Source: Gammaproteobacteria bacterium (GTDB taxonomy: Bacteria; Pseudomonadota; Gammaproteobacteria; Steroidobacterales; Steroidobacteraceae). Taken from it: DNA of 51,150 nt. A program made the translations under genes and the position numbers. Below, piece by piece: positions 20,205 through 38,438 of this stretch. The notes beneath the pieces were generated by a model, which saw nothing but the letters and a program-made list of their open reading frames with translations, was not told the DNA's origin and ran no database searches. Where the stretch lies: NCBI GenBank assembly GCA_028870705.1, contig JAGWPD010000227.1, positions 1-51,150 on the forward strand. The letters run 5' to 3'. How positions within the stretch are numbered: position 1 is the stretch's first letter; each line of letters opens with the position of its first letter.

Positions 20205-20211
20205 GGTTTGC

Positions 20212-21300: not shown

Positions 21301-21353
21301 GGTCATGCCCTCCGCAGAGTCGACCTGGCGCCGCCAGCGCAGCGCTACTGGTT

Positions 21354-24299
21354 TCAGAAGGACGCCTTCAGGCCCAGATAATATGCACGGCCGATAGCGT
21401 CATAGAGCGCCTGATCAGTTCCGTTCTGCGAGCTGGCCACGACGGGTAGTCCCTTGTCGAACAGATTGTTGATGCCGGCTCGTAACTGGACTGATGCACC
21501 CACATTGACGGTGCCAAACAGGTCCCAAAGCTGGTAGGCGGGAACTCCAATCTGGGCGTTGTTGGGAGTCAGGATGGAGCTCACATCCTTGAGAGAGCTC
21601 TGATAGCGCCACCGCAGTCCCGCCGTGTAGGCGCCAGTTCGGAACCCGAAGGACGTCAGCGCCTTCAGTTTCGGAGCCGCACGCGGCGGTACCGACCCCG
21701 GACCGGTGCCGCCGACGCTGATGCCGGTGTAATTGAACTCGGGCGCGCCAGGCAGCAGCTGGACCTTGTAGCTGTTCAGATAGCTGATGGCCGGATCAAC
21801 GTAGAACTTGCCCGCCCTGTTTCCAAAGGGCGCGTGCCTTGCCCAGTGCAGCTGCAACTCCAATCCGTCGGTCTTGAGACCGCCAAGATTCGCGTAGGGA
21901 GTCGCCACCGTCAACAGAGTACCGGTGTTGGGGTCACGATAGATGGCCTGGCAGTACAGATTCGAATTCGAATAGGTAGGGTTGGATCCATCAAGATTGA
22001 AGCACTTCGATAATACGGTGAGCCCAGGGGTAGTCGAGATCACGTTCTTGATCGAGATGTTGTAGTAGTCCAGCGAGAGTGTGAAGTCGGGGTTCAAGCC
22101 GAATACCAAGCCAAGATTGAAGGTATTGGCCTTCTCCGGCGTAAGTGTCGGGTTGCCGGCATTGGTTTGTCCGGTCGCAGTAGTCGGGAATTCATAGTTG
22201 GCTATCACACCCGACGGGACTCCCTGCGCCACGCACAGGGCCTGAACCTGTGCCGAATTGGCGCCGGTCCGGGCGGTGGAGCGGTCGTCGCAGGGATCGC
22301 CGATCGCACCAGGCGGGGTGCCAATGACAAGCTGCGAGTTCGCCCCGAGCGGCGAGTACAGCTCGCCGATATTGGGCGCGCGCACGGCACGCTGGTAGGA
22401 ACCGCGGAACAGCAATTGGTCGACCGGACGCCAGCGACCATCGAACTCGAAGCTCTGCACCGTGCCCGACCCAGAATAATCGGACACACGAGCCGCAGCG
22501 CCGACGGCGAGTTCGCGGACATGAATTCGGTTGGCCATCAGCGGCACGTCGAGCTGCGCCGCCAGCTCCTTGACCTTGATCGATCTCTCCGGAACAGCAG
22601 ATTGAACCGTGAATGCCTCGATATTGCCGCCCGGGCCCCAACCACTATTGGCGGTAGTGTCGGCATCCGGCGCGAACGAGTAGGTGTTCCGGCGATAGTC
22701 GGCGACGAATGCCACCTGTGCCGGTCCGGCTCCAAGGTCGAAAAGTTTGCCATTGATCTGGGCCTGCACCTGATCCTGGCTCAGATTTTCCTGGCTGTTC
22801 GCGTCCTTGGTCATATAGGCAATGCACGCCGCCGAAAGCGACCTGGCATTGGCATCGCCGAACGGGTTGTACCCGCCCGCGCAGATTGAGGCACCGCCGT
22901 TAGGCGCGTTGAGCAAGGTCTGCACTCGGCTTTTGAGCACCGCATCGTGCATGATCGAATTGTGCACGGAACTGTCATAGGACGCGTACACGTCGAATCC
23001 CCAACCCGGGGCGATGTCGCCCTTAATGCCGCCGAGATACTGCTGTACGACATAGTTCTCGTCCCAGTTCTTCCAGGGAATGCCGACATAGCGCGCTCTC
23101 CAGGCGAACGGGGCGCCAGCATTAGGGCGCGAAGCCAGTACGGTCCGCAGATCAGCCGGGATGAATGGATTGCTAGTCGGAATCGTGGTCAGCGCCGGAA
23201 ACTGCGTGAGGCTGCCACCGCTATTGCTGTTGACCGACAGGTTGACGTACATGAACTGCCCGTACACCGAGACCGTGGGCGCCAGGTCGTAGTCAGCCTT
23301 CCAGAATGCGGTCTTACGGTTGATGGCGTTGAGGATATTGCCTTGCTGTCCGACCGGCATGCGCACGTTGCCGCCAATAACTGCGTACCCGTTCGATCCA
23401 TTTGCCCCTTTGTAATTTGCAGCGCCGTTCTGCGTAAACAGCGTGCCATCGTTGTTGAACCCGAGTCCTCCGCCCGTGTTGAGGGGGGCGGTGATGCCGT
23501 AGGAATTGAATAGTGAAGTGAGCACCGCTGCATTGGGCGCGTTCGCTGAATCAAGCAAGTAGGTGCCATAGCCGATATACGAGGAGGGTACCTTGTCCGC
23601 GAAAAACCTGCGCGCGCTGCTCAACAGCGGATCCTGCTTTGAGTAGCTGAATGCGGTGACCATATGACCGCGGTTCTCCATGAACGCGCTGCCAAAGGCG
23701 ATCGACGCGTCGACCTTGCCCGCATCGCCCTTGGCACTTCGCGAGTCCTGCACATCGACCTTGACGCCATTGAAACCCCTTATTGTCTTGAAATTAACGA
23801 CGCCCGACATCGCGTCGGATCCGTAAACGGCTGAGGCGCCGCCGGTAATGGCATCGACCCCGGAAATGATCGCCTCAGGCAGGATGTTGACATCGACATT
23901 GCCGAATATGTCCGATACCGGCAGGCGCTTGCCGTCGAGCAGCACCAGATTGCGGTTGGTCCCGAGCCCGTGCAGATTGATGGACGCCCGACCGCCCGTG
24001 CCCTGACCGCCGGTGGTCGCATTTCCGCCAACGGTGAAGGCCGGGAGTTGATTGAGTGCATCCTGCAAATTGGATGCGCCGGTTTCCTTGATGCTCTCGG
24101 CACTGACCGTGGTGATGGGGCTGACGGAAGTATTGTTCGGGCGCTGAATCAGCGAGCCGGTGACGACCACTACTTCGAGCTCTTCTGGCTTGCTCGCCGC
24201 GGTGCCGGCCGAATCCTCGCCCGAAGCGGGCGACCCGAGAATGACGGCAAATGTAGCCAACGACGCGAACACGGTGATTCGCCTTGGATCGATACGCAT
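21354..24299 (-). CDS. TonB-dependent receptor
   Basis: 981 aa; VVVTGSLI, plug domain (INLHGLGTNRNLVLLDGKRLP, AVYGSDAMSGVVNFKT), C-terminal aromatic F (LGLKASF). Confidence 0.92.
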   Translation of the reverse strand: MRIDPRRITVFASLATFAVILGSPASGEDSAGTAASKPEELEVVVVTGSLIQRPNNTSVSPITTVSAESIKETGASNLQDALNQLPAFTVGGNATTGGQGTGGRASINLHGLGTNRNLVLLDGKRLPVSDIFGNVDVNILPEAIISGVDAITGGASAVYGSDAMSGVVNFKTIRGFNGVKVDVQDSRSAKGDAGKVDASIAFGSAFMENRGHMVTAFSYSKQDPLLSSARRFFADKVPSSYIGYGTYLLDSANAPNAAVLTSLFNSYGITAPLNTGGGLGFNNDGTLFTQNGAANYKGANGSNGYAVIGGNVRMPVGQQGNILNAINRKTAFWKADYDLAPTVSVYGQFMYVNLSVNSNSGGSLTQFPALTTIPTSNPFIPADLRTVLASRPNAGAPFAWRARYVGIPWKNWDENYVVQQYLGGIKGDIAPGWGFDVYASYDSSVHNSIMHDAVLKSRVQTLLNAPNGGASICAGGYNPFGDANARSLSAACIAYMTKDANSQENLSQDQVQAQINGKLFDLGAGPAQVAFVADYRRNTYSFAPDADTTANSGWGPGGNIEAFTVQSAVPERSIKVKELAAQLDVPLMANRIHVRELAVGAAARVSDYSGSGTVQSFEFDGRWRPVDQLLFRGSYQRAVRAPNIGELYSPLGANSQLVIGTPPGAIGDPCDDRSTARTGANSAQVQALCVAQGVPSGVIANYEFPTTATGQTNAGNPTLTPEKANTFNLGLVFGLNPDFTLSLDYYNISIKNVISTTPGLTVLSKCFNLDGSNPTYSNSNLYCQAIYRDPNTGTLLTVATPYANLGGLKTDGLELQLHWARHAPFGNRAGKFYVDPAISYLNSYKVQLLPGAPEFNYTGISVGGTGPGSVPPRAAPKLKALTSFGFRTGAYTAGLRWRYQSSLKDVSSILTPNNAQIGVPAYQLWDLFGTVNVGASVQLRAGINNLFDKGLPVVASSQNGTDQALYDAIGRAYYLGLKASF

Positions 24300-24855: not shown

Positions 24856-26163
24856 ATGGCACAGACACGTGTTCGCTTCGGCATACTGGCATTGATTTCC
24901 GGCTGCGTGACGATCAACTATCTTGACCGCGCGCTGCTCGGTGTCAGCATGCCCGCAATCACCAGCGAGCTGGCGCTGCGCCCAGCGGCGGCAGGCATTG
25001 TACTGTCCGCCTTCTCCTGGACGTATTTCCTGGCACAGATTCCCGCAGGCGTCATGCTGGATCGACTGGGGGCGCGGGTGCTGTATGCCGCCTCGCTGAT
25101 CAGCTGGTCTCTTGTGACATTGTTGCATGCGCTGACCGTCGGGCTGGCTTCGCTGCTGGGTCTGAGATTTCTTCTTGGGCTCGCGGAGGCGCCATGCTTT
25201 CCCGCCAACAGCAATGTAGTAGCGATGTGGTTTCCGCGCAGCGAGCGAGCCCGCGCCATCGGCGTGTATACGGCCGCGGAATACGTTGGACTGAGTTTCT
25301 TGAGTCCGATTCTGTTCTGGATTCTCGCGACTTTTGGCTGGCGCACGCTGTTCTTCGTATCGGGCAGCCTCGGTGTGGTGTACGCATTCGTCTTCGTGCG
25401 CAGCTACCGTGATCCCGCGGAGCACGCGAAAGTGAGTCAGGAAGAGTTGGATTACATAGCCGCGGGCGGCGGCGTAACCAATAAGGTCGCGGTCACGGGC
25501 ACATTCCGCATCGGCGAGGTGTTGGATCTGCTTCGGCAACGACAGATCCTCGGGCTGTGCATTGGCCAGTTTTCCGTGTATTCCACCTTTGTGTTTTTTC
25601 TGACGTGGTTCCCTACATATCTCGCAACTGAACGCCACATGGCCTGGATCCACGTTGGAATATATTCGGCGTTACCCTACATCGCCGGGTTTTTCGGCAT
25701 ACTGTTCGCAGGTTGGTGGTCCGACTTCATGTTGCAGCGCGGCTGCTCTCTCAGCCTGGCACGTAAGCTTCCGGTGATCGTGGGATTGGTACTCGCCTCC
25801 TCCATCGTCACCGCCAACATTGCGGACTCCAACATTGTTGTCGTGGCGATTCTCTCGATTGCGTTTTTTGCCCAAGCCATGTCTTCTTCTGGCTGGTCGG
25901 TAATTTCCGAGGTGGCTCCCAAGGGAAAGCTCGGCCTGGTGGGTGGACTATTCAGCGCATCAGCGAATCTTTCTGGCATTGTCACGCCACTGGTGGTGGG
26001 CTGGATAGTGCAGGCTACGGGCTCTTTCATATACGCCCTGGCCTTCGTCGGGGCCGTGGCCATGATCGGTGCGCTATCTTGGATCTTCGTGATCGGCGAT
26101 CTAACGCCCGTTAGGCTGAATGTGCGGAGTGATGCATGGCCTGCGCCGCCGAGGCCCGAGTAG
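24856..26163 (+). CDS. MFS transporter (ACS/D-galactonate-type)
   Basis: NYLDRALLGVSMPAI; GLAEAPCFPANSNVVAMWFPRSERARAIGVY signature. Confidence 0.85.
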   Translation: MAQTRVRFGILALISGCVTINYLDRALLGVSMPAITSELALRPAAAGIVLSAFSWTYFLAQIPAGVMLDRLGARVLYAASLISWSLVTLLHALTVGLASLLGLRFLLGLAEAPCFPANSNVVAMWFPRSERARAIGVYTAAEYVGLSFLSPILFWILATFGWRTLFFVSGSLGVVYAFVFVRSYRDPAEHAKVSQEELDYIAAGGGVTNKVAVTGTFRIGEVLDLLRQRQILGLCIGQFSVYSTFVFFLTWFPTYLATERHMAWIHVGIYSALPYIAGFFGILFAGWWSDFMLQRGCSLSLARKLPVIVGLVLASSIVTANIADSNIVVVAILSIAFFAQAMSSSGWSVISEVAPKGKLGLVGGLFSASANLSGIVTPLVVGWIVQATGSFIYALAFVGAVAMIGALSWIFVIGDLTPVRLNVRSDAWPAPPRPE

Positions 26164-26251
26164 TGGACGCGTGCCGCACGCCATCGGACCACGGGCGTAA
26201 CCGCATCGTAACTCGATCAGCTGCTCAGGATTGTGTTCCAGAAGGAAGGCA

Positions 26252-27091
26252 ATGCAGTTTTCGCTGGCACATCTGACCCTGCTGGCCTGCTCGCCGCCCG
26301 AGTTCACGGAGATCGCCGCCCGGGCGGGCTACGACTTCGTCAGCCTGCGGCCCATTGCGCTGGGTACACCAGGTGAGCCGCTCCATCCGCTGGGCAGCGA
26401 CCGTGCACTGCGCAAGCGCACTCAGGCGGCGCTCGCCGCCACGGGTCTGAAGCTCCTCGATATCGAATTGGCCCGCATATTTCATGGCTGCGACATCCGA
26501 TCCTATCTGCCGGCGCTCGAAGCCGGAGCTGCACTTGGTGCAAGGCATGTGCTGACAAGCGCCTGGGTCGATGACCGCACATTCGTGCTGGAAAAGTACA
26601 TAGAGCTGTGCGAATTGGCGGCGCCGTTCAACCTGACGGTGGATTTCGAGTTTGTTCCGTTCGCCAGTTTCCGCAACCTCATCGACGTGGTGGGCATCGT
26701 CGGGGCGTCGCGCTGCGACAACGCTGGCGTGTGCATAGACACGCTGCATTTCGACCGCTCACGATGTCGCGTTACCGACCTGGATATGCTGCCGCGCAAG
26801 TGGTTTCACTATGCCCAGATCTGCGACGGCCCCGCGGAATTCACGACCGAGGAGATCGAACTCAAGTTCGTCGCTCGCGAGGGTCGACTGTACCTGGGGG
26901 AAGGGGGGATCAACGTTGCCGGCATTCTCGCACGCATGCCATTGATACCCTATTCGATCGAGTTGCCAAATCGCCAACGGCTGCAGGCGCTGGGTCCGGA
27001 GGACTTTGCGCGCCAGTGCCTGGAAACCACCCGGCAGTATCTCACGGAGCACCCGCGGACCGATGCTACGCCTGCGGCGGCTGATTCCTGA
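26252..27091 (+). CDS. Sugar phosphate isomerase/epimerase (AP-endonuclease-2-like TIM barrel)
   Basis: MQFSLAHLTLLACSPPEFTEIAARAGYDFVSLRP; VDFEFVPFASF; CIDTLHFDRS; GEGGINVAGIL. Confidence 0.8.
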   Translation: MQFSLAHLTLLACSPPEFTEIAARAGYDFVSLRPIALGTPGEPLHPLGSDRALRKRTQAALAATGLKLLDIELARIFHGCDIRSYLPALEAGAALGARHVLTSAWVDDRTFVLEKYIELCELAAPFNLTVDFEFVPFASFRNLIDVVGIVGASRCDNAGVCIDTLHFDRSRCRVTDLDMLPRKWFHYAQICDGPAEFTTEEIELKFVAREGRLYLGEGGINVAGILARMPLIPYSIELPNRQRLQALGPEDFARQCLETTRQYLTEHPRTDATPAAADS

Positions 27092-28940
27092 ACTGCGACT
27101 GCGCGCCATACTTGATGGCGCTATTGGCGAATCCGTAACCATTGTAGCCACGTCGTTCGACGATCTCGAAAAAGAACCGTTTGGCGAAGGCGCGGGTGTA
27201 GATGTGGAAATATTCGCCGGTGGCGTCGCGGTCGTAGAGTATGTTGAATTCCTTCATTCGCTGTAGTGCTTGATCGTCGAGGCCGAACTCTGCGCCGATG
27301 TGGGCATAGTAGTTGCAAGGAATGGCGAGCACCTCCATGCCTAGCGCGCGCATTTTCTTTGCGGTAAGCAAGATGTCGTCCGTGGCGAACGCGATTTGTT
27401 GCAAACCGGCGCCTCCATAGCTGTTGAGGAAGCGAGACGCCAGGGTCTGATCGCTTTCTGGCTCGTTGAGCACGATCCGCAACCGCCCCGATGCGGACTG
27501 CAGTGCCTGCGACAGGGTCAGTCCGGCCGGCTCGGCCACCTCCGTGGCTGCAACTTTGGTGGATTCGAACAACGACAGGTAGAACAGCAGCCAGGAGGGC
27601 ATCTCCTTGTCGCTCATGACTTGGGTGAAGTGATCGACCCAGCGCAGACCCACACCACTATGATCGGCCTGCTCGTTGACAGGCAGGAACTCCGTGTCCC
27701 ACATTGGTGTGGCAAAGGCGGCAGAAACGAAATAGAGCAGGCTGTTGCCCACCCCCACCACCGCGGGAATGCGGAATTCTCCCGGACCCACATCCTGGGA
27801 GTAGGTGCTGATACTCAATTTGCTGGCCCGCTCAAGGGCTGCGTGTGGATCATCGACACGCAACCCGATCGCGCAGACGGACGCGCCGTGTGCCGAGCGG
27901 AACTTCGGCGCGAAACCTTCGGATTCGCAATTGATGATCAGATTGATTTCCCCCTGGCGCCAGCGCGTAACGGCCTTGCGACGATGCCGGTCTGTCGGCA
28001 CAAAGCCCATCTTGCGCAGCATCTGTTCAAGTCGCGGCGCCTCATCGTTGCTGGCGCAGAACTCGAAGAACTCGACGTTCTGGCAGCCAATACGTGCATC
28101 GGCGATTGGCAGCGAGCGGCGCCGGCGGCTGCGTTCCAGTTGCTCGAACAGATAGGTGAGCGATCGCATGCCATCGAGCGCGATGCCCTCGGTGGGCGCG
28201 GAACGGAAGTGATCGTTGAAGATCTCCAGCGACACTGCGCCGTCGTAGCCGAGATCCTGTACCACGGCAGCGAAGTCGACCACCGCAAGATCGCCCTGTC
28301 CCGGCATGCAGCGAAAGTGCCTGCTCAGCCACTCGGCGCTGGTGGGTAGATCCGGGGCATCAGCGATCTGCACATGTAAGATTTTGGCGACGTCGATGGA
28401 GCGCAGGCTCTGCAGCGGACCACCACCCTTGAGGGTGCCGAAACTATCCAGCACCAGACCCACCGCCGGATGATCCACCTTTTGCACAATGGACCACGCA
28501 TCACGGTGATCGGATACGTACTTGCCCCAGGCGAGAGCTTCGTAACCTACGCGTAGTCCGCGCGCAGCGGCGCGCTGACCCAGTTCGCGCAGGTCGTCGG
28601 CGATCCGATCGCGGTGACCAAGGGACTCCGGATCAACGTTGGATGTGACGATCAAGAGGTCAGCCCCGAGTTCCCGAACCACTTCGAAGCGGCGCTCAGC
28701 GCGCGCGAAAGCACGCTCTCGCAGATGTGCTGGCATGCCCTCGAAGCACTCCAGCGGCTGGAGCGCGGTACAGACCAATCCCAAATCGCGGATCATCGCG
28801 CCGATGTCGCTGGCGGGATATGGCGAGGCCAACAGGTCGCTCTCGAAGATTTCAACCCCGGCGAAGCCTGCATGCGCGATGGCCGTGAGTTTGTCCTTCA
28901 GCATGCCGCTGACGGAGACGGTCGCTATGGATTTGAGCAT
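27066..28940 (-). CDS. quiC1: Two-domain 3-dehydroshikimate dehydratase (TIM-barrel isomerase + HPPD/VOC-like fusion, QuiC1 type)
   Basis: N-terminal MLKSIATVSVSGMLKDKLTAIAHAGFAGVEIFESDL; C-terminal VOC/HPPD part with FATDDILLTAKKMRALGMEVL...NYYAHIGAEFGLDD and FFFEIVERRGYNGYGFANS. Confidence 0.82.
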   Translation of the reverse strand: MLKSIATVSVSGMLKDKLTAIAHAGFAGVEIFESDLLASPYPASDIGAMIRDLGLVCTALQPLECFEGMPAHLRERAFARAERRFEVVRELGADLLIVTSNVDPESLGHRDRIADDLRELGQRAAARGLRVGYEALAWGKYVSDHRDAWSIVQKVDHPAVGLVLDSFGTLKGGGPLQSLRSIDVAKILHVQIADAPDLPTSAEWLSRHFRCMPGQGDLAVVDFAAVVQDLGYDGAVSLEIFNDHFRSAPTEGIALDGMRSLTYLFEQLERSRRRRSLPIADARIGCQNVEFFEFCASNDEAPRLEQMLRKMGFVPTDRHRRKAVTRWRQGEINLIINCESEGFAPKFRSAHGASVCAIGLRVDDPHAALERASKLSISTYSQDVGPGEFRIPAVVGVGNSLLYFVSAAFATPMWDTEFLPVNEQADHSGVGLRWVDHFTQVMSDKEMPSWLLFYLSLFESTKVAATEVAEPAGLTLSQALQSASGRLRIVLNEPESDQTLASRFLNSYGGAGLQQIAFATDDILLTAKKMRALGMEVLAIPCNYYAHIGAEFGLDDQALQRMKEFNILYDRDATGEYFHIYTRAFAKRFFFEIVERRGYNGYGFANSAIKYGAQSQFRNQPPQA

Positions 28941-29093
28941 TGTCGGACTACTTGTTGATCCGGTGCCAGCTGGGCACCCTGAAATTGCCTGTTGCCGCAG
29001 CAGCACATAGTGGCCGCGCGTGAAGCGAATGTCACGTGCTTGACGGACAAGTTAGTACACCGTAGCCTCACATGCTCCAGGGAGGCCGGTGAA

Positions 29094-30245
29094 GTGGTGG
29101 TGCGGGTGAGCCGGGTCTTGGCCGCGGTCTTTTTGTGCTGTATTGCCGCCGAAGTGCTCAGCGGAGTGCAGCGTCCTGCGCTCTCGGCGCCCGCTGCCTG
29201 CATGCCGGAGGGCAAGGCGGGGCTTCGCTATGTGTGTGGCGCCGAGCATCCTGAAGACCTGGCTCACATTCCCGGCACGCGCTGGCTCATCACGTCTGGC
29301 TTCAGCGATGGCGCGGGTCTCAAACTCATAGACACAGCTGCCGATACGCTGCATCGCTGGTATACCGGGGCGCCGGAGCAGGTGCACTACGATTCGCAAG
29401 CCTGGCCGGATTGCCCGGGGCCGCCCGATGTAGCGCGCTTCAACGCGCATGGCATACACCTGCATGATCCCCAGGACGGACGGCGCAGCCTGTATGTCGT
29501 CAATCATGGAGGCCGCGAGAGCATCGAGATATTTAGCGTCGAAACGCATGGCATCGCCGATCCGGGCCTGGTATGGAAAGGCTGCATCGTATTGCCGCCA
29601 GGCATGGCGGCCAATAGCGTATCGGTGTTTCGCGATGGAACCATACTGGCGACCGTGCTTACCCTGCCAGGCAGTACCATTGCAGATTTCGTCCGCGGTC
29701 AGAATACCGGTGTCGTGCTGCAATGGCGGCCAGGCGACAGTGGTTTCAAGTCGCTGCCAGGCACCGAGTTGCCTGGCAACAACGGCATCGAGGTCTCAGC
29801 CGACGACCAGGAATTCTACGTCGTCGCATTTGGACTGCACGCGGTTTACGTATACTCGCGATGCAATCCGCGCCACCCGCTCCGCTCGGCGGTGGCTCCG
29901 GGATTCATGCCGGACAACATTCACTGGGACGACGGCCAGCTGCTGCTCGCCGGAATGCAGCTGGACGAGCCCGCCTGCGGCGGTCTGCGCAAGGTCATCG
30001 ATGGCAAGGCTGACGAGATGCGCTGCCATCGTGGCTACGCGGTAGCGGCGCTTGATCCGGCGGCAATGCAATTCAAGGTCCTGGCAAAGTCGGGGCCGGA
30101 TCCCGATTTCAACGGCGTATCGGCTGCCGCCATCGTCAACAATGAACTATGGCTGGGTTCCTGGCAGCAGCCCGACCGCGTTGCACACCGGCCACTGCCA
30201 AGAGGGCCGAGCCTGAAAGCCGGCGCCCGGCCGCACGCGCCGTGA
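29094..30245 (+). CDS. Exported SMP-30/lactonase-like beta-propeller protein
   Basis: GTG start after GGAGG; signal-like N-terminus; repeated strands (FNAHGIHLHDPQDGRRSLYVVNHGGRESIEIF; PGNNGIEVSADDQEFYVVAF). Confidence 0.65.
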   Translation: MVVRVSRVLAAVFLCCIAAEVLSGVQRPALSAPAACMPEGKAGLRYVCGAEHPEDLAHIPGTRWLITSGFSDGAGLKLIDTAADTLHRWYTGAPEQVHYDSQAWPDCPGPPDVARFNAHGIHLHDPQDGRRSLYVVNHGGRESIEIFSVETHGIADPGLVWKGCIVLPPGMAANSVSVFRDGTILATVLTLPGSTIADFVRGQNTGVVLQWRPGDSGFKSLPGTELPGNNGIEVSADDQEFYVVAFGLHAVYVYSRCNPRHPLRSAVAPGFMPDNIHWDDGQLLLAGMQLDEPACGGLRKVIDGKADEMRCHRGYAVAALDPAAMQFKVLAKSGPDPDFNGVSAAAIVNNELWLGSWQQPDRVAHRPLPRGPSLKAGARPHAP

Positions 30246-30404: not shown

Positions 30405-31097
30405 ATGCTGAAAACAGTCAAGTCCGTACCCGCAATCGGCGCCCGGTCGCGCTCAGCCGGGCGCGCTGCTACCAGGCAGGCCGCGCGGGCCGATGGCAGC
30501 CGCGCCAACATTCTTGCCATGGCTACGCGCGAGTTTTCCGAGAAAGGCTTCACCGGCGCGCGCGTTGACGAGATTGCCGAGCGTATCGATACTTCCAAGC
30601 GAATGATCTACTACTATTTCGGGAGCAAGGAGGGCTTGTATCGCGCCGTGCTCGAGCAGTGCTATACGCAAGTCCGCCAGATCGATACGTCACTGGACCT
30701 GGACCGGCTGGCACCTGCGGCGGCACTGCGACAGCTGGTTTACGTGACTTTCGATTACCACAACAAGCATCCGGATTTCGTGCGCATCGTGATGAACGAA
30801 AATATCAACAAGGGTGCACAGATCGGCACGGTATCCAGTATCAAGACTCGCGCCAAAGTGATCATTTCAATGTTGCAGAAACTGATCAATCGAGGCGCGT
30901 CGACGGGTGTCTTTCGAGCTGACATTGACCCGGTGGACCTGCACATGGCTATCAGTGCATTGTGCTTCTACAATGTCTCCAATCGATATACCTTTGGCCG
31001 GGTGTTTCAGCGCAACATGACGGCGCCCGGCGCGCTTGCTAGCCGGCGCGAGACGGTTGCAAATATCATCGAACGCTGGTGTTGCATCAAGCCTTGA
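30405..31097 (+). CDS. TetR-family regulator (copy 1)
   Basis: ILAMATREFSEKGFTGARVDEIAERIDTSKRMIYYYFGSKEGLYRAVLE HTH. Confidence 0.9.
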   Translation: MLKTVKSVPAIGARSRSAGRAATRQAARADGSRANILAMATREFSEKGFTGARVDEIAERIDTSKRMIYYYFGSKEGLYRAVLEQCYTQVRQIDTSLDLDRLAPAAALRQLVYVTFDYHNKHPDFVRIVMNENINKGAQIGTVSSIKTRAKVIISMLQKLINRGASTGVFRADIDPVDLHMAISALCFYNVSNRYTFGRVFQRNMTAPGALASRRETVANIIERWCCIKP

Positions 31098-31965
31098 TTG
31101 TGTTTCGAAAGTTCACCAGCATGCGGGCGGAGTCGGGCACAGTGCCCGTGAACAGCCGGAAGGCCTCGGCCGCCTGAAACACCACCATTCCGCCGCCGTC
31201 AACGGTGCGGCAGCCTAGCATTCGAGCCGCACGCAGCAGCTCGGTCTCTAGCGGGAAATAGATGATTTCGGCCACCCACATCGAAGCGCGCAGGAGCGCG
31301 GCAGGCAGCGGGGTGCCCGGATACTTGGCCATGCCGACAGGAGTCGTATTGATAACGCCATCCGAGGCCGCCAGCGCTGCGGGCAATGTATCAATCAGCG
31401 TGACACGCCCCTCACCGAAGTACTTTGACAGAGTATTCCGAACCTGCGCGGCCTTGGCGCGGTCCACGTCGAAGACGTTCAGTTGCCGCGTGCCCATCTT
31501 CAGCATGGCATAGGCCACGGCGGAGCCCGCACCGCCGGCGCCCAGCTGGGTTACCACCCGATGACTCGCTCCCGGCAGGGTGCGCCGGAACCCTTCGGCG
31601 AACCCCCACCAGTCGGTGTTGTGGCCGATGCGTCGACCATTGGCGAAAATCAGGGTGTTTACCGCCCCCAATGCGGCGGCATCGGGCGAGAGTTCGTCCA
31701 CAAGTGGCAGGATCGTCTGCTTGCAGGGATGCGTAATATTGACGCCCGCAAACCCGGCCTGCTCTACTGCGCGCACCACGCGTGGCAAGGATGCAGGTCC
31801 GTCAGGCTGCTGATCGAGATCGAACAGCTGATAGCTGAGATTCAGACCCAAGGCCGCAGCTTCGTTCATGTGCAGCGCCGGGCTGCCGGAAGCCTGGATG
31901 CCCGAACCGATTAGTCCAGTGGCGATTGGCCGTTGCGACGCAACGTTCCGGTGATTCCCGTTCAT
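31087..31965 (-). CDS. Shikimate/quinate dehydrogenase (AroE family, catabolic QuiB/QsuD-like)
   Basis: GLIGSGIQASGSPALHMNEA; GFAGVNITHPCKQTILPLVDELSPDAAALGAVNTLIF; GHNTDWWGF; QLGAGGAGSAVAYAM. Confidence 0.85.
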   Translation of the reverse strand: MNGNHRNVASQRPIATGLIGSGIQASGSPALHMNEAAALGLNLSYQLFDLDQQPDGPASLPRVVRAVEQAGFAGVNITHPCKQTILPLVDELSPDAAALGAVNTLIFANGRRIGHNTDWWGFAEGFRRTLPGASHRVVTQLGAGGAGSAVAYAMLKMGTRQLNVFDVDRAKAAQVRNTLSKYFGEGRVTLIDTLPAALAASDGVINTTPVGMAKYPGTPLPAALLRASMWVAEIIYFPLETELLRAARMLGCRTVDGGGMVVFQAAEAFRLFTGTVPDSARMLVNFRNTIKA

Positions 31966-32261
31966 ATTAACTAACAAGTGCGTTCACAGCTAGGATAGCG
32001 GGGTTGCAGTGGCATAGCAACCGAGGTCCGGTCACGTGCTGGCCGGCATCGACGCACTATCTGCCCGGGCGGATGCGAGCCGACGGCAAGGATGCGGGAG
32101 CCGTGCGGATTGAGCATGATTCTCCCCAGGAGACTGGCGCCAGCGGCTTTTTCGACGGAAACTCCTGGCAGCGAATTGACGGCGCTGCAGTCCGGGGTTC
32201 CCGAACCGCCGTCTGCCAGGCAGGGTGCCCCGCCCCAACAGGGGACAGGAGCTAGGTCGAC

Positions 32262-32933
32262 ATGATATATCGAGCAGTCAGGAAGGTCTCAACGGCAGTC
32301 CGGCCCGGAAAGAAAAGAGCCTCGGGACCGGCGCAGGACTCCCGGGAGGAGATACTGGCGGTTGCGACCCAGGAATTTGCTCAACGCGGTCTGAGTGGCG
32401 CACGCGTCGACGAAATCGCTGCGCGCACCCGGACCTCCAAGCGGATGATCTATTACTACTTCAGCGGCAAGGAAGGTCTCTACCGCGCAGTGCTTGAGCG
32501 AGTTTACTCGGAGATTCGTCAGGTTGAAAGCCAGCTGGATCTGGACGGACTTGCGCCACAGGCTGCAATTGCACGCATCGTAGAGCTGACCTTCGACTAC
32601 GATGAGAGCCATCCCGAGTTCATCACGTTGGTTAACGTCGAAAACATCAACCGCGGCAAGAGCATCGGCAAGCTTTCCAGTGTTCACAAGCGATACGCGC
32701 ACATTCTCAGCGTAATGGCGCGCGTTTTGGAACGCGGTGTGGCGAGCGGTGTGTTTCGCCCGGATGTTACGCCGATAGACGTACGTCTTGTGATTGCGGC
32801 CCTGTGTTATTTCCGGGTCTCGAACCGCTATACGTTCGGCGCGCTGTTCGACTGCAATCTCGCCGAACCGGCCGTTCGCGCCCGTCATCGTCGTATGATC
32901 GTCGACGCCGTGCAGCGATTTTTGAAGGTCTGA
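32262..32933 (+). CDS. TetR-family regulator (copy 2)
   Basis: ILAVATQEFAQRGLSGARVDEIAARTRTSKRMIYYYFSGKEGLYRAVLE; collinear with copy 1 over its length. Confidence 0.9.
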   Translation: MIYRAVRKVSTAVRPGKKRASGPAQDSREEILAVATQEFAQRGLSGARVDEIAARTRTSKRMIYYYFSGKEGLYRAVLERVYSEIRQVESQLDLDGLAPQAAIARIVELTFDYDESHPEFITLVNVENINRGKSIGKLSSVHKRYAHILSVMARVLERGVASGVFRPDVTPIDVRLVIAALCYFRVSNRYTFGALFDCNLAEPAVRARHRRMIVDAVQRFLKV

Positions 32934-33005: not shown

Positions 33006-33989
33006 TTATGCCACCGCAGGACGATGCGGCACTGCGGCGTCGGCGCTGCTGGCTGATATGTAGTCCAGAGGCAATCCCGCCGCCGGCACATAGCCATACA
33101 ACTCGTCGTCGGGCAGCGCGGCGCGCAGAATCTTGCGCACTCCCAGCAGCTTGTACAGGTCGATGCCGGTGCGCAATCCCATGGACTCGAGCATGAACAC
33201 CAGATCCTCGGTCACGATGTTGCCAGTGGCCCCAGGAGCGAACGGGCAACCGCCCAGTCCAGCCAGCGAACTATCGAAAGTGGTTACGCCCACTTCGAGA
33301 CCGGCCACGACATTGGCAAGTCCCAGACCGCGCGTATTGTGCAGATGCAGGCCTGCGAACGCTTGCGCGCCGATCGTTGAGCGCACCCGCGACACCAGCT
33401 GCTTCACCTGCTGCGGATTCGCATAACCGACGGAATCGGACAGACCTACTTCGTCGCAGCCGGCTGTCATGAGCGCCTCTGCCAGCCTTACAACCTTGTC
33501 GGCTGGCACAGCGCCCTCGTAGGTGCATCCGAAAGCCGTGGACATGCCGCCTTCGAATCGTGGTCGCCCGGCAACCGGCTGCTCACGCAGCATCGTGGCA
33601 ACGGCGCGCACCTCCTCGAGCATCTGCAGGTGCGTGCGCCGCACGTTTTTGAGACTGTGCGTCTCGGAGGCCGAGAATGGAATGGTGATCTTGTGCGCGC
33701 CAGCTCGTACTGCGGCCCGTGCGCCCTGAAGATTGGGCACCAGTACAGCAACCGTGAGTCCCGGCAGAGTCAACGCATGCGCCACCAGTTCAGCCGTATC
33801 TGCCAGCTGCGGCAGGAGTTTCGCCGGCACAAAGCTGCCGACTTCGATCTCACGCGCGCCGGCAGACACCTCCGCATCGATCCAGGCCTTCTTGTCGGCG
33901 AGCGGCATGATGTTGCCAATGCTCTGCAGGCCGTCACGCGGGCCAACCTCGCTGACCAGAATGTCAATGTCGCGCTGGGTGCCGATCAT
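33006..33989 (-). CDS. HMG-CoA lyase-like (DRE-TIM) protein
   Basis: VSEVGPRDGLQS; SLAGLGGCPFAPGATGNIVTEDLVFMLESMGL active-site Cys loop; GLHLHNTRGLGLAN. Confidence 0.88.
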   Translation of the reverse strand: MIGTQRDIDILVSEVGPRDGLQSIGNIMPLADKKAWIDAEVSAGAREIEVGSFVPAKLLPQLADTAELVAHALTLPGLTVAVLVPNLQGARAAVRAGAHKITIPFSASETHSLKNVRRTHLQMLEEVRAVATMLREQPVAGRPRFEGGMSTAFGCTYEGAVPADKVVRLAEALMTAGCDEVGLSDSVGYANPQQVKQLVSRVRSTIGAQAFAGLHLHNTRGLGLANVVAGLEVGVTTFDSSLAGLGGCPFAPGATGNIVTEDLVFMLESMGLRTGIDLYKLLGVRKILRAALPDDELYGYVPAAGLPLDYISASSADAAVPHRPAVA

Positions 33990-33998
33990 GGGTGCCGA

Positions 33999-35768
33999 TT
34001 AGCCCGTGGCTGCGTGCTCGAGATGCCTGTCGGGGCTGTAGATGTCGAGAATATTCCAATGGCCGGTCGTGGGCGTCGGATTATTTTTCATCGGTACGTC
34101 CAGTACGTAGGGACGGCCGGAAGCCAGCGCACGCCGCAGCGCAGGCCGGAGCTCGGCGGCTGAGGTGAGGCGCTCTCCCATGCAGCCGTAGGCCTTGGCA
34201 ATGTCGGCATAGTTGGGCGGTTGCTCTGCCCAGCCACCCCTGCTGGCCGGAAACAGCGTACCGTAAGTGACGCCATACGCCGCCTGCTGCAGGCCAGCGA
34301 TGGTGCCATAGGCGTTGTTGTTCATGACCAGCCAGATAATGGCGAGATTGTGCTCGGCCGCGGTGGCGAGAGCGGCGGGGTTCTGGCCGAATCCACCATC
34401 GCCGACCAGCGAAACGACAACTTTGTCCGGACAGGCCAATTTGGCGCCGATCGCGGCCGGCGGACCGAAACCCATCGTGGCAAAGCCGCCGCAGGTCAGC
34501 ACGCTGCCCGGCGTATAAATCGGAAATTGCTGCCCGACTCCATTCTTGTTCCAGCCCACGTCAGTGGTCATGATCGCATCGCGCGGCAACAACACACGCA
34601 ATTCGGCGAGAATTCGCTCGGGCATCATTGGGAAGGCATCTGACCGCTGATTCACGCTGTTTTCGGCCGCGAACGCGCGGCGAAAATCCGCTATCCGCTG
34701 GACAATCTGTGGCTCCTGGCGCCCAGCGGGGTACAGTTCGCGAGCAACTTTCAGCAGCGTGCCCAGCGCCTGCTTCAGATCCGCCACCACGCCGATCTCA
34801 GTCGGGAAATTGCGGCCAATTTCGCTGGGCTCGATGTCGATGTGGATGAGTTTGGTGGGCGGAATGTTGAATGTGTAGTCGCGATACCAGGAGCTGCAGT
34901 CGGCCTCCTTGAAACGCGTACCGACACCGAGTACCCAGTCGGCCGCGAGGCAGGTCTGATTGACAAGCGATGTACCCCAAAAGCCGGTCATGCCCAGTAC
35001 CAGCGGGTGATCGTCCGGGAGCACACCCTTGCCCATGAGGCTGTGGGCCACCGGGATCGTCAGGTGCTCGGCCAGACCGCGCAGTTCGTCCCACGCACGA
35101 GCGAGAATCATTCCCCCGCCCGCGTAAATGACCGGGTGACTGGCAGTCGCGAGATGCTTGATTATCTCGCCCGCGCTGGCCTGATCAATGGAGGGTTTGC
35201 GCAGCAAATGCGCGTTTGCCCGCAGCCGCGCGAATAGCGCGTCATCAATGACAGCCGAAAATACGTCCATCGGCACGTCGACCAGCACCGGGCCGGGCTG
35301 GCCGCTCTCCGCCAGAGCGAACGCCTTCTCGATAATTTCCGGAAATAGCTTCGGACTGTCGACTCGCCAAGCGCGCTTGACGAACGGCCGATAGATCTCC
35401 CACTGCGCGCCATCGGCGTGTAGATTGATTTCCTGATGCGGATGCTTGCCATAGTAGTGTGACGGCACGTCGCCGGCGATAACCACCATGGGAATGCAAT
35501 CCAGGGCGGCATTGGCGACGCCGGTCGCGGCGTTCGTGAGGCCAGGGCCCAGGTGTGTCAGCAGCACCGACGTCTTGCCCGAGGCGCGCGCGTAGCCATC
35601 GGCGGCATGCGCCGCAATCTGCTCGTGACGCACGTTGATGAACTCGACGTTACTCTCGGCCATCGCGGAAAGTACGGCGATATTGGTATGGCCACACAAT
35701 CCGAATACGTAGCGGATGCCGCGTTGCTCCAGGTAGCGCACCAGCAGATTGGCAACCGTGTCCTGCAT
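33999..35768 (-). CDS. Thiamine-diphosphate-dependent enzyme (acetolactate-synthase-like superfamily)
   Basis: RHEQIAAHAADGYARASGKTSVLLTHLGPGLTNA (catalytic Glu); ThDP motif LVGDGGFGQNPAALATAAEHNLAIIWLVMNNN. Confidence 0.88.
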   Translation of the reverse strand: MQDTVANLLVRYLEQRGIRYVFGLCGHTNIAVLSAMAESNVEFINVRHEQIAAHAADGYARASGKTSVLLTHLGPGLTNAATGVANAALDCIPMVVIAGDVPSHYYGKHPHQEINLHADGAQWEIYRPFVKRAWRVDSPKLFPEIIEKAFALAESGQPGPVLVDVPMDVFSAVIDDALFARLRANAHLLRKPSIDQASAGEIIKHLATASHPVIYAGGGMILARAWDELRGLAEHLTIPVAHSLMGKGVLPDDHPLVLGMTGFWGTSLVNQTCLAADWVLGVGTRFKEADCSSWYRDYTFNIPPTKLIHIDIEPSEIGRNFPTEIGVVADLKQALGTLLKVARELYPAGRQEPQIVQRIADFRRAFAAENSVNQRSDAFPMMPERILAELRVLLPRDAIMTTDVGWNKNGVGQQFPIYTPGSVLTCGGFATMGFGPPAAIGAKLACPDKVVVSLVGDGGFGQNPAALATAAEHNLAIIWLVMNNNAYGTIAGLQQAAYGVTYGTLFPASRGGWAEQPPNYADIAKAYGCMGERLTSAAELRPALRRALASGRPYVLDVPMKNNPTPTTGHWNILDIYSPDRHLEHAATG

Positions 35769-35772
35769 GAGC

Positions 35773-37209
35773 TTACGGTGCCTCGGTGTTGTAGAACTCG
35801 CCGAACAGTTCCTGGTCCGATGGGCGGTCTTCTGGAATTGGCCTGCTGACCCAGGTGGTCTGCATGAAGTGCTTTAGGTGGATGTTCTCATTGGTAATGT
35901 TGCCACCCCAGATGCCGCAGCCCAGGCTGGAGGTCATTGGCATGCCGTTGTTGAATGCTCCGGCGTTGGCTTTGGACTGGGGTTGGCGCACCATCATGCG
36001 ACTGACCGGTGCAACGCGCGCCAGGCGGTCAATGTGTTCGTCGTTGTGCGAGTAGATTCCACAGGAGTGGCCTTTGCCACCGACGTCGTAGATCTGCTGC
36101 ACCTTGCTCAGTGCGTCATCGAAACCTTCATAACGGTATACAGCCAGCAGCGTGGTGAGCTTTTCGCGTGAGTAGTTGTGCTTGGGTCCGATCTTGTCGC
36201 TTTCGACGATGATGAACTTGCGGTCGACCGGAATTTCAAACCCGGCTCGCTTGGTCACAACCTGCGGCGGACAGGCGACGGTATCGGCGAGTCGGTGACC
36301 GTCGTCATCCCACATGACCTTCTCGATCGCATCGGCCTGAGACCTGGAGGCAAGGAAGCCGCCTTCCTTCACCAGGGCAGCGAGCAACGCGTCGTAGATC
36401 CGCGAGTCGACGAGCAGATTTCCATCGGCCGAACAACCGGAGCCAAAATCCGACGTCTTCGACAAGCGTGTGTTGCGGGCCGCAATATCAATGTCCGCTG
36501 TCTCGTCAATTACCATCGTGGAGTTGCCGGCGCCGACACCGTAGGCAGGCTTACCGGAACTGTAGGCGGCACGCACCATCGGCTGGCCACCTGTTGCCAA
36601 CGTGAGATCGCAATTGGCCATGAGGTAGCCGGTCGCCGGAATACTGGGATTTTCGATACACTGGAACAGATCTGCGGGAGCTCCCTGGCGGCTGATGGCC
36701 TCGCGCATCACGCGCACCATTTCGAAGGTAGTCCGCTTGGATCGCGGGTGCGGGGAGAAGATTACCGCGTCCAGGCATTTCAGGGCATAGATGCCGGTAT
36801 AAGGAGGTGTGAGTTCCGGATTGGTTGTCGGTACCAGAGAGGCAATGACGCCGGCCGGCTTGGCGTATTTCACGATACCCTTTTCAGGCAATTCCTCAAT
36901 TACGCCCACGCTCTTCTGCCGCAGTGCGTCGCGCAGTACGCCGAGTATCTTCATGCGCTTGGAGTTGCGGCCTTCCGGGTCGCCCAAGCCACTCTCAACA
37001 ACGCTCATTTCGACAATGCGGCCAAAAGTCTTATCGTTGGCCGTCGCCCAGCCGAGGCCCCGGCAAAGCCTGTCGATCCTCTGTTGATCGTAGTGCTGCA
37101 CCACGCGCATCGCACCTCGAGCACGAGCAATCATGGCGTCGATCTCCTGGCGGGCAGCGGTTCCGAGTTCCCTGGAGGAGGAGGAGGATGTCCTAGTTAA
37201 TGAAGCCAT
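35773..37209 (-). CDS. Acylating aldehyde dehydrogenase-like (SauS/sulfoacetaldehyde-dehydrogenase group)
   Basis: KSVGVIEELPEKGIVKYAKPAGVIASLVPTTNPELTP; YSSGKPAYGVGAGNSTMVIDETADID; FGSGCSADGN catalytic-Cys region. ATG at 37209 (MASLTRTSSSSS). Confidence 0.75.
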   Translation of the reverse strand: MASLTRTSSSSSRELGTAARQEIDAMIARARGAMRVVQHYDQQRIDRLCRGLGWATANDKTFGRIVEMSVVESGLGDPEGRNSKRMKILGVLRDALRQKSVGVIEELPEKGIVKYAKPAGVIASLVPTTNPELTPPYTGIYALKCLDAVIFSPHPRSKRTTFEMVRVMREAISRQGAPADLFQCIENPSIPATGYLMANCDLTLATGGQPMVRAAYSSGKPAYGVGAGNSTMVIDETADIDIAARNTRLSKTSDFGSGCSADGNLLVDSRIYDALLAALVKEGGFLASRSQADAIEKVMWDDDGHRLADTVACPPQVVTKRAGFEIPVDRKFIIVESDKIGPKHNYSREKLTTLLAVYRYEGFDDALSKVQQIYDVGGKGHSCGIYSHNDEHIDRLARVAPVSRMMVRQPQSKANAGAFNNGMPMTSSLGCGIWGGNITNENIHLKHFMQTTWVSRPIPEDRPSDQELFGEFYNTEAP

Positions 37210-37359
37210 TGAAACTCCTCGCAACAATACCGCCTTGCGCAGAGGCTCGGCGCGCTCAATCGGCGCGGCGGATGCCATCGCCTTGCGGCGGCAATATAGC
37301 ATTCACGTACTAGATGGTGAAGGTGTACCGTGCGACGCGAAGTGGCGTTGCCCCCGTAT

Positions 37360-37379
37360 TGTACGGAAAGGTTCGTACA
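37360..37379. promoter_or_regulatory. Candidate TetR-type operator
   Basis: TGTACG-GAAAGGTT-CGTACA perfect 6-bp dyad upstream of the 37209-33006 operon. Confidence 0.4.
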
Positions 37380-37629: not shown

Positions 37630-38438
37630 CTACGCGGTGCGCCTTCGTGCCCTTTGCTGCCAATGTTGCGCCAGGCCCTTGAGGCTCGCCAACTCCACCC
37701 ATTCGTCGTCCGTGAATTGCTGCCGGGACGCCAGCGCCACAAAACGCGCGATCGTCCACGCGGGGTTCGCCCGCTCCACTCACTGCAAGGAATCGCCCGG
37801 GCGTACTGCGCCTTCGCGCGCTACCCGGTAATACCAGCCACTTCGCCCATTCCTCACCATCGCATGCACGACCTGGTCATCGTTGAAGCGTAGCGCAAAC
37901 TTGTGGCATGGCTGGCGGGGCTGGCACACGACGAGCTGCGCGGTGCCAATTACGTGCACATCTCCGATGCATACACTGGATTCATCGAGCCCGTCGATAA
38001 CGAGATTCTCACCGAGACTCCTCCGGGAACGAACAGCGCGGCGTGCGCTCGGACATCTGCTGGCCATCGCGGGTAGTTTGATACCGCATATCCGTACTCG
38101 GCCTTATCAGTCCCGCCGTGCATGCGAAGATCCGCCTGCTCATCTCCTTCCAGCCCCAACGACTGCACGAGGACGGGTCCCTCCACGGAACCATTGACAA
38201 AGCTACTGGGCACGCTCTCGGGCCCTAATGGCCACGAGCGCTCGTTCCAGCTTCCGCCCCTGTTCAGCTCCAGCGCGCAACCCATTAGCTGGATCCTGGC
38301 GCGCGGCGGGACCCTCCCAACACCATTGGCTGTAATCAACGTGCCCTCATACATCGGCGTACTGAGCGGCGCGTTCGTCGCGCAATAGTGCCAGTTCCGA
38401 ATTTCGACTCTTTCCAAGCTCACGGCAGTGACTTCCAT
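37630..38438 (-). pseudogene. MOSC-domain (YiiM-like) protein, frameshifted and nonsense-interrupted
   Basis: LGPESVPSSFVNGSVEGPVLVQSLGLEGDEQADLRMHGGTDKAEYGY...FVPGG, then next frame GENLVIDGLDESSVCIGDV...CQPRQPCHKFALRFND...GRSGWYYRVAREGAVRPGDSLQ, TGA, VERANPAWTIARFVALASRQQFTDDEWVELASLKGLAQHWQQRARRR. The upstream limit is uncertain. Confidence 0.75.

What the first reader, a model, noticed from the sequence alone, without database searches (positions are those of the whole stretch)
33006..37379. Unusual operon: acylating-ALDH-like + ThDP C-C lyase/ligase-like + HMG-CoA-lyase-like
Seen: three tightly packed minus-strand genes (gaps of a few bp) encode a SauS-group aldehyde dehydrogenase with FGSGCSADGN, an acetolactate-synthase-superfamily ThDP enzyme and an HMG-CoA-lyase-like protein; a TetR gene converges on the end. 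Established: each family does C-C cleavage or aldehyde-to-acyl-CoA chemistry separately. Inference: they may form an undescribed route in which the ThDP enzyme makes an aldehyde from a 2-oxo- or 2-hydroxyacyl substrate, the ALDH converts it to an acyl-CoA, and the HMGL-like enzyme cleaves a hydroxyacyl-CoA. I cannot assign substrates. There is no CoA ligase or sulfonate gene next to it, which argues against a standard sulfoacetaldehyde pathway.
Basis: partly seen in the sequence, partly recalled or inferred. Interest (0 to 1): 0.7.

Follow-up and report, generated by a model that had tools for sequence, protein, structure and literature searches.

The report
Quinate-type ring-opening gene cluster
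The three genes are the core of a widely conserved but apparently undescribed bacterial gene cluster that most likely breaks open plant-derived quinate/shikimate-type rings directly, without first turning them into aromatic compounds, so the route would need no oxygen.

Summary
The trio is real: HMGL 33006-33989, ThDP enzyme 33999-35768, acylating ALDH 35773-37209, all minus strand, gaps 4-9 bp. It is not an isolated oddity. A scan with the ThDP enzyme gave 80 loci in several phyla. Of 58 loci with full flanks, 57 carry an acyl-CoA-forming gene (this ALDH, or a family-III CoA-transferase). 56 carry a retro-Claisen lyase (HMGL, or a citrate-synthase-fold citryl-CoA lyase), the two types almost never together. 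56 carry quinate/shikimate genes. In 249 Rhodobacteraceae genomes the same 18 hold ThDP enzyme and ALDH, always adjacent. The ThDP family shares the active-site His of cyclohexane-1,2-dione hydrolase, absent from ALS-, Gcl- and Xsc-like paralogs. The window genome shows no protocatechuate dioxygenase. Best reading: hydroaromatic acid to ring dione (dehydrogenase plus TIM-barrel dehydratase), ThDP ring hydrolysis to a semialdehyde, ALDH to an acyl-CoA, lyase to acetyl-CoA plus a 2-oxo acid; most likely quinate via homocitryl-CoA to acetyl-CoA plus 2-oxoglutarate. Intermediates are inferred, not assayed. The held open-access literature has no description of it.

The parts
33006..33989 (-). HMG-CoA-lyase-like retro-Claisen lyase (327 aa, P0001)
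   Evidence: PF00682; NCBIfam HMGL subfamily model 282 bits, over cut-off 246; RDG, HLHNTRG and GGCPFAPGATGN motifs intact; replaced by citryl-CoA lyase in most related loci
33999..35768 (-). ThDP-dependent enzyme (589 aa, P0002), proposed cyclic-1,2-dione hydrolase
   Evidence: three TPP_enzyme domains; no NCBIfam equivalog cut-off reached; H27, E49, Q122 align with H28, E52, Q116 of CDH and are invariant in 29 family members
35773..37209 (-). SauS/AdhE-type acylating aldehyde dehydrogenase (likely start ATG 37209; ORF open to 37302)
   Evidence: NF047625 SauS 443 bits, cut-off 600; nearest solved structures are CoA-acylating acetaldehyde and succinate-semialdehyde dehydrogenases; FGSGCSADGN conserved across loci
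37360..37379 (.). 20-bp palindrome TGTACG-N8-CGTACA upstream of the operon; possible TetR operator
   Evidence: exact copy only here; near-chance for the pattern class, so weak
32262..32933 (+). TetR regulator (TetR_C_29), convergent with the trio
31087..31977 (-). quinate/shikimate dehydrogenase
   Evidence: NCBIfam shikimate dehydrogenase 417 bits, cut-off 235; the two nearest solved structures, nearly tied, are 2nlo (shikimate dehydrogenase) and 3jyo (quinate/shikimate dehydrogenase)
30405..31097 (+). second TetR regulator (TetR_C_29)
28992..30245 (+). ORF of unknown family; homologue in the L070 cluster (58%)
   Evidence: no Pfam or NCBIfam hit
27066..29006 (-). QuiC-like TIM-barrel + HPPD-like fusion, altered substrate residues
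   Evidence: 530 bits to QuiC1 5HMQ; 596 bits against NCBIfam QuiC cut-off 1200; R64E and H168G
26231..27091 (+). TIM2: AP_endonuc_2-fold enzyme, proposed 3-dehydroquinate dehydratase to the ring dione
   Evidence: in 52 of 58 full-flank loci; E140, D170, E244 invariant; AF2 model pLDDT 94.8, nearest folds IolI, QuiC1, Lmo2234, then IolE and AsbF
24856..26163 (+). MFS transporter
   Evidence: PF07690; recurs in L070, L085, L088
21354..24299 (-). TonB-dependent receptor
   Evidence: PF00593, PF07715
20212..21306 (-). BD-FAE-type (acetyl/feruloyl) esterase
   Evidence: PF20434; homologue in the Povalibacter cluster L085
18525..20258 (-). type-B carboxylesterase
   Evidence: PF00135; homologues in clusters L011, L085, L088

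Best explanation
The trio is the lower half of a non-aromatising catabolic pathway for hydroaromatic (quinate/shikimate-type) acids. Proposed steps: (1) quinate to 3-dehydroquinate by the SDH-family dehydrogenase (Gfo/Idh/MocA enzymes in other loci; AroD/AroQ bring in 3-dehydroshikimate). (2) A TIM-barrel enzyme (TIM2, IolI/IolE/QuiC-like) removes the C5 hydroxyl, giving 1-hydroxy-3,4-dioxocyclohexane-1-carboxylate. (3) The ThDP enzyme hydrolyses the C3-C4 bond as CDH and IolD do on their diones, giving homocitrate semialdehyde. (4) The acylating ALDH makes homocitryl-CoA. (5) The HMGL-like lyase (or citryl-CoA lyase) splits it to acetyl-CoA and 2-oxoglutarate. Net: quinate + 2 NAD(P)+ + CoA to acetyl-CoA + 2-oxoglutarate + 2 NAD(P)H; formulae balance and no O2 is used. 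Shown: the genes, their co-conservation, module swapping, active-site conservation, no recognisable protocatechuate dioxygenase in the genome. Inferred: every substrate and intermediate. About 0.75 for the outline (hydroaromatic ring opening, semialdehyde, acyl-CoA, retro-Claisen), about 0.4 for the exact homocitryl-CoA chemistry.
For: Of 58 full-flank loci: acyl-CoA-forming gene in 57, lyase in 56, hydroaromatic genes in 56, TIM2 in 52, SDH or Gfo dehydrogenase in 54. Two unrelated lyase folds exclude each other (Fisher 5e-12), as do ALDH and CoA-transferase (6e-9). Cluster HMGLs are not one clade (AU p 1.3e-8), so the lyase was apparently recruited repeatedly: the step is a retro-Claisen on a citryl-CoA-like thioester, which fits the tertiary OH and COOH on quinate C1. 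ThDP and ALDH are present in the same 18 of 249 Rhodobacteraceae genomes, always adjacent; other ALDH hits are at most 41% identical. Distances covary: ThDP-ALDH r 0.96, ThDP-TIM2 r 0.93. CDH active-site His28 is invariant as H27 in the family; ALS-like, Gcl-like and Xsc-like paralogs have G/A/S there. Own genome: no PF00775, no PF07746, the only LigB-family hit looks YgiD/DODA-like. Loci occur in likely anaerobes (Desulfofustis, Desulfobulbaceae, Geobacteraceae, Clostridiales), without QuiC. Esterases, TonB and MFS next door fit uptake of a quinate ester such as chlorogenate.
Against: No enzyme or growth data. CDH His31, His76 and Asn484 are not conserved in the family. Homocitryl-CoA lyase activity is not known to me for HMGL, whose usual product is a 3-oxo acid. 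The role of the QuiC-like protein (56 loci) is unexplained. Loci without the CoA-acylating ALDH would need another aldehyde oxidation. The window genome is 93% complete, so an absent dioxygenase could be missing sequence; about half of the tested holder genomes do carry PF00775 or LigA hits. The chemical steps rest on family analogies.
Confidence: 0.58

Rival explanations
1. Same cluster logic, but the ThDP enzyme performs a retro-benzoin cleavage of an alpha-hydroxyketone (3-dehydroquinate itself), giving a dialdehyde; the ALDH thioesterifies one end and the lyase releases acetyl-CoA plus 4-hydroxy-2,5-dioxopentanoate, which is oxidised or split further.
For: Needs no dehydratase; benzaldehyde-lyase-type ThDP enzymes are among the structural relatives.
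Against: TIM2 with invariant metal ligands is present in 52 of 58 loci, which a dehydratase-free route would not explain; it leaves a reactive second aldehyde with no conserved enzyme for it.
Confidence: 0.12
2. The cluster degrades a cyclitol or C-methyl-inositol by an inositol-like route (IolG-like Gfo dehydrogenase, TIM dehydratase, IolD-like ThDP hydrolase), with the quinate-like genes as accidental or side-branch neighbours.
For: Gfo/Idh/MocA genes score best against inositol dehydrogenase or levoglucosan dehydrogenase models; TIM2's top fold match is IolI; GH motif shared with IolD-like enzymes. A methyl-branched tertiary alcohol would suit an HMGL.
Against: SDH, AroD/AroQ or QuiC-like genes in 56 of 58 full loci; the window cluster has an SDH and no Gfo gene; citryl-CoA lyase alternatives point to a carboxylated tertiary alcohol.
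Confidence: 0.1
3. The trio is an ordinary quinate-to-protocatechuate neighbour: QuiC makes protocatechuate and the trio works on an unrelated substrate (2-oxo acid decarboxylation, acyl-CoA formation, leucine-type HMG-CoA cleavage).
For: A QuiC homologue and quinate/shikimate dehydrogenase are adjacent; the window HMGL is the only HMGL match in its genome at E 1e-30 or better and keeps canonical motifs.
Against: No protocatechuate dioxygenase found in the genome; QuiC active-site residues are altered here and metal ligands are lost in most Rhodobacteraceae loci; ThDP and lyase stay linked to hydroaromatic genes in several phyla; HMGL is swapped for a citryl-CoA lyase.
Confidence: 0.12
4. Sulfoacetaldehyde or related sulfonate pathway (SauS + Xsc-like).
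For: Best NCBIfam hit of the ALDH is SauS.
Against: ALDH 443 bits against a 600 cut-off; ThDP 289 bits against a 620 cut-off for Xsc; no sulfonate genes among the recurrent neighbours; the Xsc-like paralog lacks the GH motif.
Confidence: 0.02

Closest known systems
[quoted passage not shown]
   Same: ThDP superfamily and overall fold (TM about 0.83), active-site GHT motif (H28/H27), E52/E49, Q116/Q122 aligned; ring opening of a cyclic 1,2-dione (PMC12247030 for CDH activity)
   Different: Only distantly related (26-28% in structural alignment; 31% by search); H31, H76, N484 not conserved; 22Lin itself carries both CDH (matches 2pgn over all 589 residues) and, as a separate gene, the new family member
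myo-Inositol IolG-IolE-IolD pathway
   Same: dehydrogenase, TIM-barrel dehydratase, ThDP dione hydrolase logic; GH motif
   Different: IolD not among the 25 best models for P0002; here followed by an acylating ALDH and a retro-Claisen lyase, with shikimate-family genes
Classical quinate/shikimate catabolism (QuiA/QsuD, QuiB, QuiC, protocatechuate, beta-ketoadipate)
   Same: quinate/shikimate dehydrogenase and QuiC homologue present
   Different: no protocatechuate dioxygenase found in the window genome; QuiC active site altered or lost in many loci; ring opened before aromatisation in the proposal
SauS acylating sulfoacetaldehyde dehydrogenase
   Same: same ALDH subfamily, catalytic Cys context
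   Different: below the SauS cut-off; at most 41% identity to the other SauS/AdhE-type hits in Rhodobacteraceae; different neighbourhood
HMG-CoA lyase / citryl-CoA lyase
   Same: retro-Claisen release of acetyl-CoA; the citryl-CoA lyase in sister loci passes the NCBIfam cut-off (461 bits, cut-off 261)
   Different: here apparently interchangeable lyases of unrelated fold for one step; substrate proposed homocitryl-CoA

Membership tests
SauS (acylating sulfoacetaldehyde dehydrogenase) | NCBIfam equivalog cut-off (600 bits) | tested here: not met
   443 bits
SauS (acylating sulfoacetaldehyde dehydrogenase) | sulfonate/sulfoacetate genes adjacent | tested here: not met
   none among the recurrent neighbour families that were identified
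CoA-acylating aldehyde dehydrogenase (broad) | catalytic Cys motif and nearest relatives CoA-acylating | tested here: met
   FGSGCSADGN; nearest structures 5j78, 8cei, AdhE
Acetolactate synthase / Xsc / Gcl | NCBIfam cut-offs | tested here: not met
   ALS 420 vs 538, Xsc 289 vs 620, Gcl 323 vs 791 bits
Cyclic-dione hydrolases (CDH, IolD type) | active-site His after the first Gly (CDH H28) | tested here: met
   H27 invariant in 29 members; G/A/S in ALS-like, Gcl-like and Xsc-like paralogs
Cyclic-dione hydrolases (CDH, IolD type) | remaining CDH active-site residues H31, H76, N484 | tested here: not met
   I30, T82, I490; Q116 aligns with invariant Q122; H31, H76, Q116 as active-site residues are from memory
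Cyclic-dione hydrolases (CDH, IolD type) | ring-dione hydrolysis activity | not testable with these tools
   needs assay
HMG-CoA lyase superfamily | catalytic motifs and NCBIfam subfamily cut-off | tested here: met
   282 vs 246 bits; RDG, HxH, GGCP loop
HMG-CoA lyase (leucine pathway) | leucine/isovalerate operon context | tested here: not met
   no acyl-CoA dehydrogenase or methylcrotonyl-CoA carboxylase genes in the trio's cluster
QuiC 3-dehydroshikimate dehydratase (27066-29006) | NCBIfam equivalog cut-off 1200 bits and active-site residues R64, H168 | tested here: not met
   596 bits; R64E, H168G; metal ligands E134, D165, Q191, E239 kept
Protocatechuate-forming quinate pathway | protocatechuate ring-cleavage dioxygenase in the genome | tested here: not met
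   PF00775 0 hits, PF07746 0 hits, PF02900 one hit of YgiD/DODA type, in a 93% complete genome

The most novel reading that the evidence does not exclude
A previously undescribed, oxygen-independent, non-aromatising route for quinate and shikimate: dehydrogenation, dehydration to a ring 1,2-dione, ThDP ring hydrolysis, homocitryl-CoA formation and retro-Claisen cleavage to acetyl-CoA and 2-oxoglutarate, spread over several bacterial phyla including anaerobes, with modular replacement of the acyl-CoA-forming and lyase steps.
Probability: 0.4. Interest if true: 0.87.

Novelty: new variant of a known kind. Interest (0 to 1): 0.74.

Why it matters
Textbook bacterial quinate/shikimate catabolism goes through protocatechuate and needs O2-dependent ring cleavage. 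A ring-opening route to two central metabolites without O2 would explain how anaerobes and protocatechuate-dioxygenase-free bacteria could use abundant plant hydroaromatics. It would give functions to several families now annotated as acetolactate synthase, sulfoacetaldehyde dehydrogenase, HMG-CoA lyase, citryl-CoA lyase or 3-dehydroshikimate dehydratase, and it makes a simple growth and enzyme test possible in cultured strains such as Povalibacter uvarum, Ruegeria halocynthiae or Aromatoleum diolicum.

Tried and rejected
Sulfoacetaldehyde pathway: both enzymes below cut-offs, no sulfonate genes seen. CDH itself: 22Lin holds true CDH (matching 2pgn) as a separate gene, so P0002's family is not CDH. 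QuiC as the conserved protocatechuate maker: its dehydratase metal ligands are replaced in most Rhodobacteraceae loci. Literature searches for homocitryl-CoA, for quinate with thiamine or citryl-CoA terms, and for Aromatoleum or Ruegeria quinate use found nothing relevant; the library is open-access PMC only. Fold search of the ThDP model is unspecific: ALS, Gcl, HACL, CDH and BAL types all match, and the model has low-confidence loops, some probably at the active site. HMGL pocket comparison gave no clear specificity residue. The palindrome at 37360-37379 is too close to chance to claim as an operator.
Full report
Observation. The three ORFs are intact and tightly packed on the minus strand: HMGL-like 33006-33989, ThDP enzyme 33999-35768, SauS-type ALDH 35773-37302. 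Sequence upstream shows AGGAG before ATG 37209, so the ALDH is probably 478 aa, like its homologues (median 476). A TetR gene (32262-32933, +) converges on the operon.

Families. No curated NCBIfam cut-off among the families listed is reached by the ThDP enzyme (acetolactate synthase 420 vs 538 bits, Gcl 323 vs 791, Xsc 289 vs 620) or by the ALDH (SauS 443 vs 600); the HMGL passes the broad HMGL subfamily model (282 vs 246). Nearest solved structures of the ALDH are CoA-acylating enzymes.

Neighbourhood. Next to the trio lie a quinate/shikimate dehydrogenase (31087-31977; the two nearest solved structures, nearly tied, are a shikimate dehydrogenase entry, 2nlo, and a quinate/shikimate dehydrogenase, 3jyo), a QuiC-like TIM-HPPD fusion (27066-29006), a second TIM barrel (TIM2, 26231-27091), another TetR, an MFS transporter, a TonB receptor, a BD-FAE esterase and a type-B carboxylesterase.

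Conservation. The closest plasmid homologue of the ThDP enzyme (67%, Azoarcus KH32C) lies among a CoA-transferase, citryl-CoA lyase, shikimate dehydrogenase, AroD and HPPD/TIM genes. One genome scan returned 80 loci of 65-78% identity from Alpha-, Beta- and Gammaproteobacteria, Thermodesulfobacteriota, Bacillota and Planctomycetota. The search was by ThDP only, so the other genes are independent observations. Of 58 full-flank loci, 57 have the ALDH or a family-III CoA-transferase, 56 have HMGL or citryl-CoA lyase, 55 have both functions, 52 have TIM2, 54 have an SDH or Gfo dehydrogenase, and 56 have at least one SDH, QuiC-like or AroD/AroQ gene. Two of these loci (L085 and L091) appear to be the same Povalibacter locus, so counts are inflated by one. 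HMGL and citryl-CoA lyase exclude each other (1 locus with both, Fisher 5e-12), and so do ALDH and CoA-transferase (2 with both, 6e-9). These Fisher values ignore relatedness, since most loci are Alphaproteobacteria. In 249 Rhodobacteraceae genomes the ThDP enzyme occurs in 18, and the same 18 alone hold a 61-69% ALDH, always adjacent; all other hits are at most 41%. ALDH lies next to ThDP on the same strand in 67 of 71 loci, and distances covary (ThDP-ALDH r 0.96, ThDP-TIM2 0.93, ThDP-HMGL 0.79); such correlation is also expected from shared ancestry alone. Among 98 relatives of the window genome only two hold the ThDP enzyme, the window itself and one genome of the same family, which is probably Povalibacter uvarum, its contig being of the same length as that of L085, so the cluster is patchily distributed.

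Lyase recruitment. A tree of cluster and non-cluster HMGLs places the window and L011 HMGL apart from the large Alphaproteobacterial/desulfo clade and from a Bacillota pair; a single clade for cluster HMGLs is rejected (AU p 1.3e-8). With citryl-CoA lyase of a different fold in other loci, the same slot was apparently filled several times by retro-Claisen lyases. That is the strongest clue that the intermediate is a citryl-CoA-like thioester with a tertiary alcohol, as quinate C1 would give.

ThDP mechanism. True CDH was found as a separate gene in the 22Lin genome and matches PDB 2pgn over all 589 residues. In an alignment with it, the family has invariant H27, E49 and Q122 at CDH H28, E52 and Q116. 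Two 22Lin paralogs of acetolactate-synthase type, a Gcl-like and an Xsc-like one have G, G, A and S at the H28 position, while GHG-motif ThDP enzymes from plasmid loci, two of them beside Gfo or inositol-type genes, share the His (the paralog names are my reading of their motifs). CDH H31, H76 and N484 are not shared. PMC12247030 states that CDH cleaves cyclohexane-1,2-dione and that its H28A/N484A variant couples pyruvate with ketones. So dione hydrolysis is plausible, not shown.

TIM2 and QuiC. TIM2 has invariant E140, D170 and E244 and a confident model (pLDDT 94.8) whose nearest folds are IolI, QuiC1 and Lmo2234, with IolE and AsbF further down the list. It is the better candidate for the dehydration step. 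The QuiC-like protein keeps the dehydratase metal ligands in the window but has R64E and H168G relative to the QuiC1 active site listed in PMC7442255. In most Rhodobacteraceae loci the residues E134, D165 and E239 are replaced while the HPPD-like domain's H443, H521 and E599 stay (window: H521Q). Its role is unexplained; annotating these as 3-dehydroshikimate dehydratase is doubtful.

Genome check. The window genome (93% complete) has no PF00775 or PF07746 match, and its one LigB-family match carries a GHGSPM motif that I associate with YgiD/DODA proteins. Of 34 holder genomes tested, 15 have neither PF00775 nor PF07746. Many are draft genomes.

Chemistry (inference). Quinate C7H12O6 minus 2H gives 3-dehydroquinate; minus water gives a 3,4-dione C7H8O5; plus water with C3-C4 cleavage gives homocitrate semialdehyde C7H10O6; oxidation with CoA gives homocitryl-CoA; retro-Claisen gives acetyl-CoA and 2-oxoglutarate. 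Loci with CoA-transferase could reach the same thioester from homocitrate; some such loci (L005, L084, L085) also carry an ordinary ALDH.

Novelty. No paper in the held library mentions homocitryl-CoA, and none of my searches found this gene combination; subscription literature was not searchable, so prior description cannot be excluded. From memory only, anaerobic fermentation of quinate by cultured bacteria was reported in the 1990s; this was not checked here. Verdict: a real, widespread, apparently uncharacterised catabolic cluster; its substrate class is well supported, its exact intermediates are a testable proposal.

Noticed in passing
QuiC-like genes of Rhodobacteraceae clusters, e.g. 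L033 near 1742: QuiC homologues whose 3-dehydroshikimate dehydratase metal ligands are replaced (E134L/M, D165N, E239A) while the HPPD-like domain keeps its metal ligands; probably mis-annotated and of unknown function.
   Followed up: partly
L064:10001-11758 and L116:1372-3141 (Aromatoleum diolicum 22Lin): The CDH source strain carries both CDH (matching 2pgn) and, separately, a member of the new ThDP family in an SDH-AroD-CoA-transferase-citryl-CoA lyase cluster.
   Followed up: yes
window 37820-38438, minus strand: Remains of what reads like a MOSC-domain (YiiM-like) gene, continued in another frame upstream of the trio; looks frameshifted or decayed. Read by eye only.
   Followed up: no
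window 18525-24299: Two esterases plus a TonB receptor beside the cluster, with homologues in Povalibacter and other clusters; suggests uptake of an esterified hydroaromatic such as chlorogenate.
   Followed up: partly
window 37360-37379: Palindrome TGTACGGAAAGGTTCGTACA upstream of the ALDH; possible TetR operator, near-chance as a pattern.
   Followed up: partly
L025, L031, L034, L041: Desulfobulbales-type and Geobacteraceae clusters carry TRAP, Gfo, SDR or ADH genes but no QuiC and no SDH near the ThDP gene (contigs partly truncated); perhaps a different upper pathway or substrate.
   Followed up: no
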